A stretch of DNA of 46,703 nucleotides. It comes from an uncultured Bacilli bacterium (GTDB taxonomy: Bacteria; Bacillota_I; Bacilli_A; RF39; UBA660). The first letter of the stretch is position 1, and every line of letters begins with the position of its first letter. The notes below the pieces were generated by a model. It was not told the origin of the DNA, searched no databases, and saw nothing but the letters and a program-made list of their open reading frames with translations. The stretch is from positions 1-46,703 of the forward strand of contig CALVVT010000044.1 in NCBI GenBank assembly GCA_944363935.1. Reading direction: 5' to 3'. A program made the position numbers and the translations under genes. Below, one piece after another: positions 34,245-45,385 of the stretch.

Positions 34245-34268
34245 AAAGTTGTGAAAATCACAACTTTT
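34244..34268. terminator. Bidirectional terminator between the unknown gene and sspI
   Basis: AAAAGTTGTGA, loop AAA, TCACAACTTTT: an 11-bp perfect stem with T-rich sequence following on the plus strand. Confidence 0.85.
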
Positions 34269-34467
34269 ATTTTAGACTTTTTTCTAAAGTTTCTAGTATT
34301 TCATTTTGTAAATTACTATTTTGCCATAATATTTCAAAGAAAACGCCAAACCCTGGTAAAGCTAGTTCTTCTTTGTCGTTAATATTTCCTTCAATTGATG
34401 CTTTTAATTCATTAATATTTGTATTTTTAAAATTACTTTTAATATGATTTCTAATACTTATATTCAT
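34267..34467 (-). CDS. sspI: Small acid-soluble spore protein SspI
   Basis: The 66-residue product aligns with SspI along its length: an N-terminal ISIRNHIKSNF, the conserved LPGFGVFFEILWQNS (LPGLGVLFEVIWKNA in Bacillus) and the C-terminal EILETLEKSLK. SspI is a minor spore-core protein made in the forespore. AAAGGATGG precedes the ATG. The opposite-strand frame at 34238-34447 is an antisense shadow. I looked for a sigma-G promoter; GTATA with a -10-like TTATAAT is present at wide spacing, too weak to call. Confidence 0.88.
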   Translation of the reverse strand: MNISIRNHIKSNFKNTNINELKASIEGNINDKEELALPGFGVFFEILWQNSNLQNEILETLEKSLK

Positions 34468-34566: not shown

Positions 34567-35118
34567 ATGATAGCATTAATTATTATTGGTGTTATAGTAT
34601 TAATATTAGTTATTTATGTTATCGCAACTTACAATGGACTAGTAAACTTTAAAAATAGAGTTCAAGATAGTTGGGCTGGAATTGAAGTTCTTTTAAAAAG
34701 AAGAAACGATTTAATTCCTAATTTAGTTGAAACAGTAAAAGGTTATGCTGGTCATGAAAAAAGTACTTTAGATGCCGTTATTACAGCTCGTAATAATGCC
34801 GTTAATGCTAAAGGAAAAGAAGAAGAAATGAAAACTTCTAATATGCTTACTGATGCTTTAGGAAATTTATTTGCTCTAGCAGAAAATTATCCTGATTTAA
34901 AAGCTAATACTAACTTTTTAGATTTACAAAATAATTTAAGAACAACTGAAGATGGAATCGCATCTTCTAGACAAGCTTATAATGATACCGTGTTAGCTTA
35001 TAAAAATAAATTAGAAATGTTTCCATCTAATATAGTTGCTAGTATATTTAACTTTAAACCAGAAGCTTTCTTTGAAGCTGAAGAAACTGAAAAAGAAACA
35101 CCAAAAGTTAGTTTTTAA
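34567..35118 (+). CDS. lemA: LemA family protein
   Basis: An N-terminal membrane helix (IALIIIGVIVLILVIYVI) is followed by the LemA core: YNGLVNFKNRVQDSWAGIEVLLKRRNDLIPNLVETVKGYAGHE and NLFALAENYPDLKANTNFLDLQNNLRTTEDGIASSRQAYND. Length 183 is usual. LemA proteins have an extracellular N-terminus and a cytoplasmic helical bundle; the function is poorly defined. TATAAT at about 34541 and AGGAGG give clear signals. A GTCA/TGAC terminator follows, which is duplicated further downstream. Confidence 0.92.
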   Translation: MIALIIIGVIVLILVIYVIATYNGLVNFKNRVQDSWAGIEVLLKRRNDLIPNLVETVKGYAGHEKSTLDAVITARNNAVNAKGKEEEMKTSNMLTDALGNLFALAENYPDLKANTNFLDLQNNLRTTEDGIASSRQAYNDTVLAYKNKLEMFPSNIVASIFNFKPEAFFEAEETEKETPKVSF

Positions 35119-35120
35119 AG

Positions 35121-35146
35121 GTCATTTATTTGACTTTTTTTCTTTA
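35121..35146 (+). repeat. 26-nt direct repeat (terminator hairpin), left copy
   Basis: GTCATTTATTTGAC followed by T7, C and TTTA is identical over 26 nt to 36331-36356. The GTCA/TGAC hairpin and T tract make it a short terminator. The two copies bracket the HipA-like module. Confidence 0.75.
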
Positions 35147-35177
35147 AGTAAATATAATTAAGTTAGAGGAGGACTAT

Positions 35178-35414
35178 ATGGAAAAGAAAGAATTATATGA
35201 TCATAGTATAAAATATGATACTTCACATTTACCTAAATTTTTACAAGAGGAAATAAAATTATTAGAAACTTATGATAAAAATAACGATTTTATAAATTAT
35301 GATGCTCTTTCTTCAGCTATGGAAGGTCATTTAAAAAATTATTTGCTTAATAAAAGAATAACTGAAAGAGATTTTAAAATTATGATGCGAAAATATGGGG
35401 GGTATGTTGATTGA
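35178..35414 (+). CDS. Small protein encoded upstream of a HipA-like kinase
   Basis: The 78-residue acidic protein (MEKKELYDHSIKYDTSHLPKF, FINYDALSSAMEGHLKNYLLN, FKIMMRKYGGYVD) has no helix-turn-helix or membrane segment. Its frame ends TTGA, overlapping the kinase start, so the two are coupled like partners of a toxin-antitoxin or regulator-kinase pair. It may bind the kinase; it does not resemble classical HipB. A TATAAT (35152-35157) and AGGAGG precede it. Confidence 0.65.
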   Translation: MEKKELYDHSIKYDTSHLPKFLQEEIKLLETYDKNNDFINYDALSSAMEGHLKNYLLNKRITERDFKIMMRKYGGYVD

Positions 35415-36331
35415 TAAATATAGATAATTTTGAAAAATATCCGGCTAGCGGATTAAGTTATGGTGGCCATGGGGGAAGTAAAAAAGGAATAATAATTGAT
35501 GGTGAAAAATGGTTTTTAAAGTATCCCAAGTCTACTAAAAGTATGGAGGTTAAAGGTATTTCTTATACTACAACGCCTTTATCAGAATATTTGGGTTCTA
35601 ATATATATGATTTAATTGGAATTCCTGCTCATGAAACTAGACTTGGCGTATATGATAATAAGTTAGTTGTTGCCTGTAAAGACTTTTTAAAAAACGATGA
35701 GATAATTTTAGATTACAACATGATAAAAAATAATTATGACGAAAAATTAGAACTTACTTTATCCTCATCATTTATATCAGATAATGATATTGACGAGCTT
35801 TGTATGATTATGGATAATAATATATATTTTAAAGAAAATCCTCTTTTAAAAGAAAGGTTTTGGGATATGTTTGTCATTGATGCTTTAATCAGCAATAATG
35901 ATCGTAACGAAGGAAATTGGGGACTTATATTTAATAGAAGAACAGGAAATACTAGATTAGCTTTAGTATTTGATAATGGAGCTGCTTTTTATAATAAAAC
36001 AGGTAGAGAAAAATTTGAAGAATATTTAATTAATGATTTTAAATTTATGCAGGTAGCTTATGATAGTTCTATTTCTATATTTTCTCAAAATGAAAAAACA
36101 ATTAATCCTTTAAAATATATTGAAAGTATGAAAAACAATGATTGTAATGAAGCTATAAAAAGAATTGTTCCTAGAATAAATCTTCAAAAAATAGAAAAAT
36201 TTTTTGAAGATATTCCTGAAGAATATCAAGGAATAATAGTTATGTCTAAAAATCAAAAAGAATTTTATTTAAAGGTTTTGAAATATCGCTATGATAATAT
36301 TTTAAAATCTGTTTACAATAAATTAAATTAG
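35411..36331 (+). CDS. HipA-like Ser/Thr protein kinase
   Basis: Kinase motifs of the HipA/CtkA group are present: a glycine-rich start GGHGGSKKGIIIDGEKWFLKYPK with the ATP-binding Lys, catalytic WDMFVIDALISNNDRNEGNWGLI (Asp164 in NDRNxxN), and metal-binding ALVFDNGAAF in place of DFD. At 306 residues it lacks the separate N-terminal subdomain of E. coli HipA. The start is TTG at 35411, overlapping the previous stop, behind GGGGGG. Targets in relatives are tRNA synthetases or other proteins; here unknown. The two-gene module lies between two identical 26-nt repeats, suggesting insertion or duplication. Confidence 0.78.
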   Translation: MINIDNFEKYPASGLSYGGHGGSKKGIIIDGEKWFLKYPKSTKSMEVKGISYTTTPLSEYLGSNIYDLIGIPAHETRLGVYDNKLVVACKDFLKNDEIILDYNMIKNNYDEKLELTLSSSFISDNDIDELCMIMDNNIYFKENPLLKERFWDMFVIDALISNNDRNEGNWGLIFNRRTGNTRLALVFDNGAAFYNKTGREKFEEYLINDFKFMQVAYDSSISIFSQNEKTINPLKYIESMKNNDCNEAIKRIVPRINLQKIEKFFEDIPEEYQGIIVMSKNQKEFYLKVLKYRYDNILKSVYNKLN

Positions 36332-36356
36332 TCATTTATTTGACTTTTTTTCTTTA
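36331..36356 (+). repeat. 26-nt direct repeat (terminator hairpin), right copy
   Basis: Identical to 35121-35146; it begins at the stop codon of the HipA-like gene and also serves as its terminator. Confidence 0.75.
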
Positions 36357-36384
36357 TCTGGTATGATTATAAAAGGTGATTATT

Positions 36385-37356
36385 ATGCAGTGGAAAATTG
36401 GCGATGTTGAAATAAAAAATAGAGTTGTTCTTGCTCCTATGGCTAGTATTTCTAATAGTGCTTTTAGAAAAATAGCTAAAGAAATGGGAGCTGGTCTTGT
36501 AGTTGCTGAAATGGTTAGTGATAAAGCTATATATTATAATAGTCAAAAAACACTTGATATGCTTTATATGACTGACGAAGAAAGGCCTATATCCCAGCAA
36601 ATATTTGGAGCAGATAAAGATACTTTTGTTTATGCAGCTAAATATATTTATGAACATATGCATCCTGACATTATCGATATCAATATGGGTTGTCCTGTTC
36701 CTAAAGTTGCTTTAAGAGCTCAGGCAGGTAGTGCTTTACTTAAAAATCCTGATAAAATATATGAAATAGTCAAAGCAGTTGTTCAAAGTGTTCCTATCCC
36801 TGTAACTGTAAAAATTAGAAGTGGTTGGGATAATAATAGTATAAATGCTAAAGAAGTAGCTAAAATATGTGAAAAAGCTGGCGCTAAAGCCATTACAATA
36901 CATGGAAGAACTAGAAGTCAAGGATATAGCGGTAAAGTTAATCTAGATGTTATTAAGGAAGTTAAAGAAAGTGTAAATATTCCTGTAATTGGTAATGGAG
37001 ATATTAAAACTCCGGAAGATGCCAAAAAAATGCTTGATTATACAGGTTGTGACGCTATTATGATAGGTAGAGGTGTTTTAGGTAATCCTTTTTTAATTAG
37101 AAATACTATTAATTATTTAGATGGTAAGGAAATAATTCCTGTTACTAATATTGATAAAATAAATATGCTTATTAAACATTTTAATTATTTACTAGAAATC
37201 AAGTCTGAAAAAACCGCACTTTTAGAAATGAGAACAATAGCTAGTTATTATTTAAAAGGTCTTCCAGCTAGTAGTTTAGTTAAAGAAAAAATTTTTAAAT
37301 GTCAAACCAAAGAAGAGTTTTTGGAGCTTATTCAAACCTATTTTCAAAGTCTTTAG
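36385..37356 (+). CDS. tRNA-dihydrouridine synthase (DusB-like)
   Basis: The FMN-binding TIM barrel is recognisable: NRVVLAPMASISNSAFRKIAKEMGAGLVVAEMVSD, DINMGCPVPKVALRAQAGSALLKNP (catalytic Cys in NMGCP), VTVKIRSGWD, ITIHGRTRSQGYSG, and VIGNGDI with IMIGRGVLGNPF. It reduces uridine to dihydrouridine in the tRNA D-loop or elsewhere. ATG 36385 sits behind AAAGGTGA. The closest characterised group is DusB, but the exact target uridine cannot be read from the sequence. Confidence 0.93.
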   Translation: MQWKIGDVEIKNRVVLAPMASISNSAFRKIAKEMGAGLVVAEMVSDKAIYYNSQKTLDMLYMTDEERPISQQIFGADKDTFVYAAKYIYEHMHPDIIDINMGCPVPKVALRAQAGSALLKNPDKIYEIVKAVVQSVPIPVTVKIRSGWDNNSINAKEVAKICEKAGAKAITIHGRTRSQGYSGKVNLDVIKEVKESVNIPVIGNGDIKTPEDAKKMLDYTGCDAIMIGRGVLGNPFLIRNTINYLDGKEIIPVTNIDKINMLIKHFNYLLEIKSEKTALLEMRTIASYYLKGLPASSLVKEKIFKCQTKEEFLELIQTYFQSL

Positions 37357-43303: not shown

Positions 43304-43322
43304 AGGAGTTTTTCAAAATTAA
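43304..43322 (+). repeat. Direct repeat flanking the mobile-element area, left copy
   Basis: GGAGTTTTTCAAAATTAA is repeated at 45250-45267. GCATATAAAAACC, found at 43374-43386, is repeated at 45269-45281. Confidence 0.6.
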
Positions 43323-43590: not shown

Positions 43591-43677
43591 ATCACAAAAG
43601 AACGTATCTCTTATGATACTTCTAATTGTGTTTGTTAAGTTTAGATAGCTAACTTTGGTGAGGGAGCTATCTTTTTT
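43591..43677 (+). ncRNA. Candidate structured small RNA next to the Bro-N gene
   Basis: A hairpin pairs ATTAG and GTATCA (from 43583) with TGATAC and CTAAT (to 43625). A terminator follows: GATAGCT (43644-43650)/AGCTATC (43665-43671) and T6. No reading frame is present. The RNA ends at the stop codon of the convergent Bro-N gene. With the repeats upstream, it could be a copy-control or antirepressor RNA of a former replicon (inference). Confidence 0.5.
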
Positions 43678-44509
43678 ATTCTATATATTTTTTATTCATG
43701 TTATTCTCTTTAGAAATAACTGTATCTCCTAATTCTTTTTCTAAATTATTTCGTGTATTTTTTGCTATATTACCTCCACGTCGTGCAATTTTTTTGTTTT
43801 GTTCCAAACCTATGGGATTATATTTTTTTGCCAATTCTTTAGTGGCTGTTTCTCCTATATCGGTTAATAATATTTCTAAATCGCTCATATTATCTCTTAA
43901 AGATTCTTTTCTTAACCCTTTATATGCTTTGTATTCGTTGGCTTTCATCCCAGACCATGCTTTATATATTTCATTTGTCAATATACCATATTCAATAGGT
44001 TCATTAATACCTCGTTCTTTCCAAGTGTCTGTTAATTGAAATCTATGTAGTATTCCTTTTAAACGTTTTTCTATCCAAGCATCATTAAAGCCTTGAGCTT
44101 TATATACTATGATAGCTCTATCTACGGCTTTAGAAGGGTCAAATGTTTCATCTATTCTTTCACTTCCTACTTTTGCAAGCCATAGTTTAAAGGGCTCTGC
44201 TTTTGGGCTAGGAATAGACTGTATTAACCTTAAAATTCCTTTTGTATCAAGGACATCAGTTTTATAAAACTTTCCATCTTTTGATTGCATTTTCAGTTGA
44301 CTACAAATTGTAGTCAACTCACTTCCTTCCTGTTTTAAGCGGTTTTTTAATACAGACCAATATTTTCTGGGATTAGAACTGTCAGTCAGCACTTTAACTA
44401 CATCAACTACACTAAAATAATAATCTTCCTTTTCACTATCCCAAACTGTTCTAATATTTTGATTTTCAAAGATTTTAATAGTATTTTTTTTGCTAGATGT
44501 TTTTTCCAT
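43676..44509 (-). CDS. Bro-N domain protein (phage antirepressor/DinD-like)
   Basis: The N-terminal ~110 residues form a Bro-N domain (IRTVWDSEKEDYYFSVVDVVKVLTDSSNPRKYWSVLKNRL, DTKGILRLIQSIPSPKAEPFKLWLAKVG). The C-terminal part (IYKAWSGMKANEYKAYKGLRKESLRDNMSDLEILLTDIGE) is the tail common to these chromosomal Bro/DinD-like proteins. Such proteins occur in phages, integrative elements and islands and probably bind DNA. It starts behind GGTGG with a dyad site upstream, and is surrounded by remnants of mobile DNA. Confidence 0.82.
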   Translation of the reverse strand: MEKTSSKKNTIKIFENQNIRTVWDSEKEDYYFSVVDVVKVLTDSSNPRKYWSVLKNRLKQEGSELTTICSQLKMQSKDGKFYKTDVLDTKGILRLIQSIPSPKAEPFKLWLAKVGSERIDETFDPSKAVDRAIIVYKAQGFNDAWIEKRLKGILHRFQLTDTWKERGINEPIEYGILTNEIYKAWSGMKANEYKAYKGLRKESLRDNMSDLEILLTDIGETATKELAKKYNPIGLEQNKKIARRGGNIAKNTRNNLEKELGDTVISKENNMNKKYIE

Positions 44510-45012: not shown

Positions 45013-45272
45013 TTCTATTGTCATAGATCATTTTTCTCTGTCTTTTTGATAGATTTATATCAAGATTTTCGTCTTAATATCTTTTTCTTTTTGTATGTCT
45101 AGTTTTCCATAAAACTTTTCACACTATCCTTTTTGATTACATATACATTACATCACACTTCGTACGCGGTGTCGATAATTTTTTGAAAAAAAGTGAAAAA
45201 TTCAGTTTTTGGTCTTGTTTTTGTAAATAGACTTTTTAGGAGTGTTTTGGGAGTTTTTCAAAATTAATGCAT
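45013..45272. other. Gene-free remnant between transposase fragment and tRNA-Gly
   Basis: About 260 nt of AT-rich sequence with no convincing reading frame. It includes one GC-richer patch, CACACTTCGTACGCGGTGTC (45151-45170), and the right copy of the GGAGTTTTTC repeat (45250-45267). Probably decayed insertion-sequence DNA. Confidence 0.45.
45250..45267 (+). repeat. Direct repeat flanking the mobile-element area, right copy
   Basis: GGAGTTTTTCAAAATTAA, identical to 43305-43322, followed 1 nt later by GCATATAAAAACC (45269-45281). Confidence 0.6.
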
Positions 45273-45311: not shown

Positions 45312-45385
45312 TGGAGCAGGTGAGGAGAATCGAACTCCCGTGGTTAGCTTGGAAGGCTAAAGTTCTACCATTGAACTACACCTGC
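45312..45385 (-). tRNA. tRNA-Gly (anticodon UCC)
   Basis: The minus strand reads GCAGGTG (acceptor), a D-arm with AGTTCAATGGTAGAAC, anticodon arm TTAGC-CTTCCAA-GCTAA with anticodon TCC, T-arm GGGAGTTCGATTCTCC, and CACCTGC closing the acceptor, followed by TCCA. The CCA end is encoded. All four stems pair. It lies at the edge of the mobile-element area, a typical neighbourhood for integration. Confidence 0.95.

What the first reader, a model, noticed from the sequence alone, without database searches (positions are those of the whole stretch)
35121..36356. HipA-like kinase module bracketed by identical 26-nt terminator repeats
The two-gene module lies between two copies of a 26-nt sequence that is itself a terminator. 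Either the module was inserted with duplication of the site, or homologous terminators mediated its gain. Recombination between repeats would delete the module cleanly and still leave a terminator after lemA.
Basis: partly seen in the sequence, partly recalled or inferred. Interest (0 to 1): 0.57.

Follow-up and report, generated by a model that had tools for sequence, protein, structure and literature searches.

The report
Kinase cassette between duplicated terminator repeats
A two-gene toxin-like kinase module sits between two identical copies of a short DNA switch that ends one gene and helps start the next; a related species has the same place with one copy and no module, and similar kinase genes elsewhere sometimes show the same bracket, which suggests small cassettes that insert at gene ends by copying the site.

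Summary
Confirmed: the 26-nt sequence occurs at 35121-35146 and 36331-36356 and nowhere else in this genome within 3 mismatches. It brackets a small 3-helix protein gene plus a CtkA-type HipA-superfamily kinase gene. Of 20 close lemA loci examined, three have lemA next to dus: the window; G020, with the same module, kinase internally deleted, and two mutually identical repeats that differ from the window's; and G061, the predicted empty site with one repeat. So the module sits at a duplicated site, and the two copies look homogenised within each species. The repeat is more than a terminator: its right arm TTGAC(T) is a -35 element, so each copy ends one transcript and helps start the next. Bracketing repeats of at least 18 nt recur at CtkA loci (6 of 54, against 5 of 361 control genes; 4 of 52 without the window and G020) and at another HipA-like group (4 of 15), sometimes including a tRNA 3' end or last codons. 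The window unit encodes no recombinase; four host genomes show only two tyrosine recombinases each. Insertion with site duplication is the best explanation; the enzyme is unknown and clean excision was not seen.

The parts
34567..35118 (+). lemA (LemA family), upstream flank of the site
   Evidence: Pfam LemA E 3.6e-59
35121..35146 (+). repeat copy 1: hairpin/T-run terminator after lemA whose right arm supplies the -35 (TTGACT 35130-35135) for the module
35153..35158 (+). -10 TATAAT, 17 nt after TTGACT (11 of 12 consensus bases, the best in the region)
35178..35414 (+). 78-aa partner (putative antitoxin), three helices predicted
   Evidence: model pLDDT 91.6
35411..36331 (+). CtkA-type HipA-superfamily kinase, 306 aa, TTG start overlapping the partner's stop; catalytic residues K37, D164, N169, D188 present
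36331..36356 (+). repeat copy 2: terminator after the kinase (its first base is the last base of the TAG stop) and -35 (TTGACT 36340-36345) for dus
36362..36367 (+). -10 TATGAT with TG before it, 16 nt after TTGACT, in front of dus
36386..37356 (+). dusB-type tRNA dihydrouridine synthase, downstream flank of the site
   Evidence: NCBIfam TIGR00737 above cut-off

Best explanation
The module is a horizontally acquired toxin-antitoxin-type cassette (CtkA/HipA-superfamily kinase plus small partner). It inserted at the terminator/-35 hinge between lemA and dus in a common ancestor of the window species and G020, and the insertion left a copy of the 26-nt hinge on each side. The upstream copy ends lemA and gives the module its -35; the downstream copy ends the kinase and gives dus its -35 back, so insertion disturbs neither neighbour and loss through the repeats would be nearly scarless. 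The copies have since been kept alike within each species by gene conversion or by cycles of excision and re-insertion. Shown: the repeats, the shared position in two species, the empty site in a third, within-species identity, recurrence at other HipA-family loci. Inferred: direction (gain), the insertion event, the homogenisation mechanism, promoter and terminator activity, toxin-antitoxin function. Not known: the enzyme.
For: Empty site G061: lemA stop, one hinge (AGTCAATTATTTGACTTTTTTTT), then dus. G020: same order with partner gene intact, kinase reduced to residues about 1-35 plus 273-305, both hinges AGTCAAGTTATTTGACTTTTTTTCTT. Window and G020 partner proteins are sisters (99/97 support), so one ancestral insertion is likely. 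Between the two species lemA is 479/552, dus 798/969, the partner gene 179/252 and the leaders 18/30 and 22/35 identical, while the two copies inside each genome are 26/26. All five copies at this site carry TTGACT with a -10-like hexamer 16-18 nt on; hairpins with a TTGAC right arm before a T run were only copies at this site (3 of 208 terminators found in 1.16 Mb; the window copies have a shorter perfect stem and are not among the 3). Bracketing repeats: 6 of 54 CtkA loci vs 3 of 249 genus control ORFs, p 0.0014; vs 5 of 361 pooled controls, p 0.0010. Second HipA-like group 4 of 15, p 2e-4 vs 3 of 249 (L015 and L017 look like one orthologous insertion). Repeats include host 3' ends: last codons, stop and terminator (L082), tRNA-Met 3' end (L085), stop codons (L018, L131).
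Against: 48 of 54 testable CtkA loci show no such repeat; of the eight 60-62% relatives found in genome contigs only one has repeats (L043, a 243-column, 79% duplication of a different look). Without the window and G020 the enrichment is weaker: 4 of 52 vs 5 of 361 (p 0.017) and, against class-wide controls only, 2 of 112 (p 0.08). Repeat lengths vary widely (18 to about 240 nt), unlike one transposase. No recombinase lies between the window repeats; four host genomes (G022, G390, G241, G234) show only two tyrosine recombinases each, presumably the housekeeping pair. Only one empty site was found.
Confidence: 0.6

Rival explanations
1. The module came in by ordinary homologous exchange of the lemA-dus interval (a minimal-mobile-element style replacement), and the second hinge was later copied from the first by gene conversion or slippage, with no insertion machinery.
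For: Copies are clearly homogenised, so copying between them happens. The permease 3' end in the same genus carries different accessory genes in different species (RhuM in G022; a different 276-aa gene in G025, G034, G035), as expected for interval replacement.
Against: It does not explain why repeats at L082, L018 and L131 begin inside the upstream gene's 3' end or stop codon, or L085's tRNA 3' end.
Confidence: 0.2
2. A conventional tyrosine-integrase element that lost, or never had, its integrase: the repeats are attL/attR and the integrase acts in trans. The hairpin arms would be its core binding sites.
For: tRNA 3'-end duplications of the classic kind: 18 nt at tRNA-Met around the L085 kinase and 63 nt at tRNA-Pro around a 1.28-kb unit in the own genome. 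The own genome has seven integrase-family matches.
Against: G022, G390, G241 and G234 carry bracketed cassettes but only two tyrosine recombinases each; no integrase between the window repeats; core sequences differ from site to site.
Confidence: 0.15
3. Convergence: each copy is kept because terminator plus -35 function constrains it, and the identity is selection rather than duplication.
For: The TTGACT and T run are kept in all five copies.
Against: Loop bases and the run after the Ts are also identical within, and different between, species; only this site in 1.16 Mb uses a TTGAC arm.
Confidence: 0.05

Closest known systems
Microcystis ParE/ParD-like TA pair fenced by 152-bp direct repeats containing inverted repeats (PMC7935541, section 23 read)
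   Same: A TA gene pair downstream of a gene, between two identical direct repeats that contain an inverted repeat; patchy in strains
   Different: Different TA family and organism, 152-bp repeats; the section read does not describe terminator/-35 dual function, empty sites or within-species homogenisation
CtkA of Helicobacter pylori (PDB 3akj) and PADLOC candidate PDC-M03A
   Same: Sequence relatives of the kinase over nearly the whole length
   Different: The H. pylori protein is tied to the tfs3 element (PMC5536186, title and start of abstract seen in the listing); here the kinase is paired with a small upstream gene in a 1.2-kb unit
HipBA and HipBST toxin-antitoxin modules (PMC8262856, passages read)
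   Same: HipA-superfamily kinase encoded after a small gene
   Different: No HipB or HipS match was found for the 78-aa partner; 'CtkA' does not occur in that paper's main text
Minimal mobile elements of Neisseria (recalled; only a search listing seen)
   Same: Small accessory units between conserved genes that differ between relatives
   Different: Spread there by homologous flanks (recalled); here the site is duplicated
Integrase elements at tRNA 3' ends (recalled)
   Same: Short direct repeats that restore the 3' end of the target gene
   Different: No integrase, 1.2-kb unit, targets also protein-gene terminators

Membership tests
HipA-superfamily / CtkA kinase | Sequence homology to CtkA/HipA kinase fold | tested here: met
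   PDB 3akj E 3.2e-38 over residues 16-287; PADLOC PDC-M03A E 1.7e-29; Pfam HipA_2 and HipA_C only below cut-off
HipA-superfamily / CtkA kinase | Catalytic lysine, catalytic-loop D and N, metal-binding DxG | tested here: met
   K37, D164, R165, N169, D188 and G190 conserved in 30 of 30 aligned relatives, window included; the assignment of roles is recalled kinase knowledge
Type II toxin-antitoxin module | Small antitoxin gene next to and usually upstream of the toxin in one operon | tested here: met
   4-nt ORF overlap; the pair is conserved in relatives in other contexts
Type II toxin-antitoxin module | Partner related to known antitoxin domains | tested here: inconclusive
   Partner family vs HTH-bearing partners: hhalign probability 68.5%; no Pfam or NCBIfam family
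Type II toxin-antitoxin module | Kinase toxic and neutralised by the partner | not testable with these tools
   Needs expression in a laboratory strain
Tyrosine-integrase element | Encodes a recombinase | tested here: not met
   Only the two ORFs lie between the window repeats
Tyrosine-integrase element | Identical short direct repeats at a gene 3' end, with an empty site of one copy | tested here: met
   Window 26/26; G061 single copy
DDE transposon with target-site duplication | Short duplication of fixed length and a transposase gene | tested here: not met
   Repeats from 18 to about 240 nt at different loci; no transposase between the window repeats
DDE transposon with target-site duplication | Terminal inverted repeats | not tested
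   Not specifically examined
Repetitive extragenic element / MITE | Many copies per genome | tested here: not met
   Two copies in the own genome within 3 mismatches

The most novel reading that the evidence does not exclude
In these uncultured Bacilli, HipA-superfamily kinases and some other accessory genes (RhuM, Bro-N) travel as tiny recombinase-free cassettes that enter at gene 3' ends and intrinsic terminators by an undescribed route that copies 18 to 63 or more nt of the target, leaving both neighbours transcriptionally intact; at lemA-dus the copied piece is a combined terminator and -35 element, so the cassette gains a promoter and insulation in one step and can be lost without a trace.
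Probability: 0.3. Interest if true: 0.75.

Novelty: new variant of a known kind. Interest (0 to 1): 0.5.

Why it matters
How toxin-antitoxin and single accessory genes without any recombinase move between core genes is poorly explained. A defined site with filled, decayed and empty states in one genus, and repeats whose within-species identity suggests continuing exchange, gives a concrete case in which gain, loss and homogenisation can be tested. It also shows an economical design: one 26-nt piece acting as terminator and -35 element on both sides of an insertion.

Tried and rejected
Common genome-wide terminator or MITE: rejected. Pure chance: rejected. Independent acquisition in G020, suggested by the larger divergence of the module than of lemA: not supported, since the neighbouring gene 'memb' and the dnaE end are about as diverged (65% and 66%) and the partner proteins are sisters. 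L091's 16-nt repeat: set aside, under the 18-nt threshold and in coding sequence by my reading. A general lineage habit of terminators doubling as -35 elements: rejected, the TTGAC arm occurs at this site only (a first version of that scan was faulty and found none). Phage or plasmid carriage: no relative in viral contigs by that pattern scan, 5 distant plasmid records and 1 phage record. An empty site for L082: only one genome of its genus is held. An empty site for the RhuM cassette: of the six other genomes with the permease none gave a copy that I could read as empty. Rows dropped before the 54-locus count: 3 near-duplicates of 64 loci, then 7 with short flanks. Of the four straddled control ORFs, one was the window kinase itself and one lay in a tandem gene duplication that the later intergenic rule removed; one search has three control hits and two, all left in the count. 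No fold search was run on the partner model: three helices are too plain to be informative.

Full report
Observation. It is unique to this site: two copies in the own genome within three mismatches, and two 3-mismatch look-alikes in the other 43 genus genomes. Both copies form a hairpin with a T run; the stems are short, and the simple terminator scan does not list them.

What is between. The 78-aa gene and the 306-aa kinase gene overlap by 4 nt. The kinase is a relative of CtkA (PDB 3akj, E 3e-38) and of PADLOC's PDC-M03A, with catalytic residues conserved in 30 of 30 aligned relatives. The small partner is predicted as three helices (pLDDT 91.6, nine sequences). In relatives the small upstream gene comes as a lone domain, with an HTH part, or with what looks to me like a ribbon-helix-helix part (the motif names are my reading). 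The lone domain of a second kind (L120 set) matches the C-domain of the HTH kind at 98.4%, the window kind only at 68.5%. A toxin-antitoxin pair is therefore likely but not tested.

The site in relatives. Of 20 lemA loci above 60% identity that were read downstream, three have dus next (some contigs end early). G020: lemA - hinge - partner - kinase remnant - hinge - dus. The kinase has lost roughly residues 36-272 in frame, and the partner is intact, the pattern expected if the kinase is the harmful half. The window's kinase gene has an 11-nt direct repeat, AAGGAATAATA, at the two corresponding places (reading), so deletion between short repeats is plausible; the intact G020 ancestor is not known. 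No partner-gene relative was found in G061, and no kinase above the threshold.

Homogenised copies. Window pair: GTCATTTATTTGAC..., G020 pair: GTCAAGTTATTTGAC..., G061 single: GTCAATTATTTGAC.... Between window and G020 each copy differs by about two to three changes, while within each genome the pair is identical over 26 nt; flanking leaders are only 18/30 and 22/35 identical. The partner proteins are sisters. If the duplication predates the split, about five changes in all would be expected between the paired copies and none is seen (roughly e^-5, my estimate from few sites). Gene conversion, or excision and re-insertion, is the likely cause.

A double-use element. The promoter scan puts TTGACT of copy 1 17 nt before TATAAT (11 of 12, the best site in the region) and TTGACT of copy 2 16 nt before TATGAT with TG. 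The right arm of the hairpin plus the first T is the -35. G020 shows TTGACT-18-TATAAT and TTGACT-16-TAAAAT, G061 TTGACT-17-TAAATT. So each copy ends the upstream gene and contributes the -35 of the next. This would explain why both copies are needed and why the empty state is viable. Promoter use is inferred, not measured.

Is it more general? I counted exact direct repeats of at least 18 nt, mostly outside ORFs, one on each side of the gene. CtkA-family loci: 6 of 54 (64 loci, 61 after removing near-duplicates, 7 with too little flank). Controls: 3 of 249 ORFs of 250-450 aa in 40 genus stretches plus the window and 2 of 112 in 20 stretches of other genomes of the class. Pooled p is 0.0010; without the window and G020, 4 of 52, p 0.017 pooled and 0.08 against the class controls alone. 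A different HipA-like group, 14 loci of the genus and one of another genome: 4 of 15, where L015 and L017 appear to be one event. Repeats appear only at CtkA loci that have an upstream partner gene (6 of 30 against 0 of 24, p 0.028; grouping by hand). The genus control hits are RhuM (PF13310), Bro-N and PDDEXK genes, accessory genes too.

Where the repeats lie. L082: 34 nt covering the last codons and stop of the upstream gene and its terminator, repeated after the kinase. L085: 18 nt including the 3' end of tRNA-Met. L018 and L131: the repeat contains the upstream gene's stop codon. L081: 67 columns, 87%, covering a terminator. L043: 243 columns, 79%, probably another kind of duplication. L016: 28 nt that reads as coding sequence of a neighbouring gene (my reading). 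Own genome C50: 63 nt at tRNA-Pro around two small ORFs. Lengths vary, so no single transposase fits.

Enzyme. Nothing between the window repeats encodes a recombinase. Tyrosine recombinases: G022, G390, G241 and G234 have two matches each, the own genome seven. A resident dedicated integrase is thus not general; one supplied in trans by a passing element, or a homology-driven route, remains open.

Verdict. The clean-deletion idea is plausible and agrees with G061, but the only loss seen went another way. The architecture is a new variant of the known 'TA pair between direct repeats' (Microcystis, PMC7935541, section 23 read). In my ten literature searches no listed title or abstract start described this site type; most subscription papers are not in that library.

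Noticed in passing
L114 (lysS end at oriented 1453), L121, L116/L117, L079/L080: CtkA kinases without a partner gene lie directly downstream of aminoacyl-tRNA synthetase genes: lysS twice (one with an ATGA stop/start overlap), gltX (18 nt to the ATG), ileS (30 and 224 nt to the aligned start). HipA and HipT inactivate synthetases (PMC8262856, passages), so kinase and possible target may share an operon. At an assumed 2% of genes, 4 of 24 has binomial P 0.0012.
   Followed up: partly
window 43305-43322 and 45250-45267: 18-nt direct repeat around a Bro-N gene (43676-44509, minus) and a 123-aa ORF, beside the 3' side of tRNA-Gly (45312-45385, minus): a second candidate cassette in the window.
   Followed up: partly
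G000:C50 8667-8729 and 9947-10009 (L148; also L005): 63-nt repeat of the tRNA-Pro 3' end plus terminator around a 1.28-kb unit with two small ORFs (113 and 88 aa) that match no Pfam family.
   Followed up: partly
L131:12466-13614 (G022) and orthologous permease ends L191-L195: An ABC-type permease gene's 3' end is a hotspot: RhuM between two identical terminators in G022, a different 276-aa gene in G025, G034 and G035, and a diverged RhuM relative in G020.
   Followed up: partly
G000:C7:960-3298: Three tyrosine-recombinase matches in a row on one strand, resembling a recombinase-in-trio element (name recalled).
   Followed up: no
window 34267-34467, minus: Small acid-soluble spore protein I gene (Pfam SSPI E 1e-15) just upstream of lemA: a spore gene in a genome assembled at about 1.27 Mb.
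   Followed up: no
L043:5427 onward and L081 (minus strand, below 1225): Both bracketed CtkA units are followed by a gene for an ATPase of similar look (my reading).
   Followed up: no
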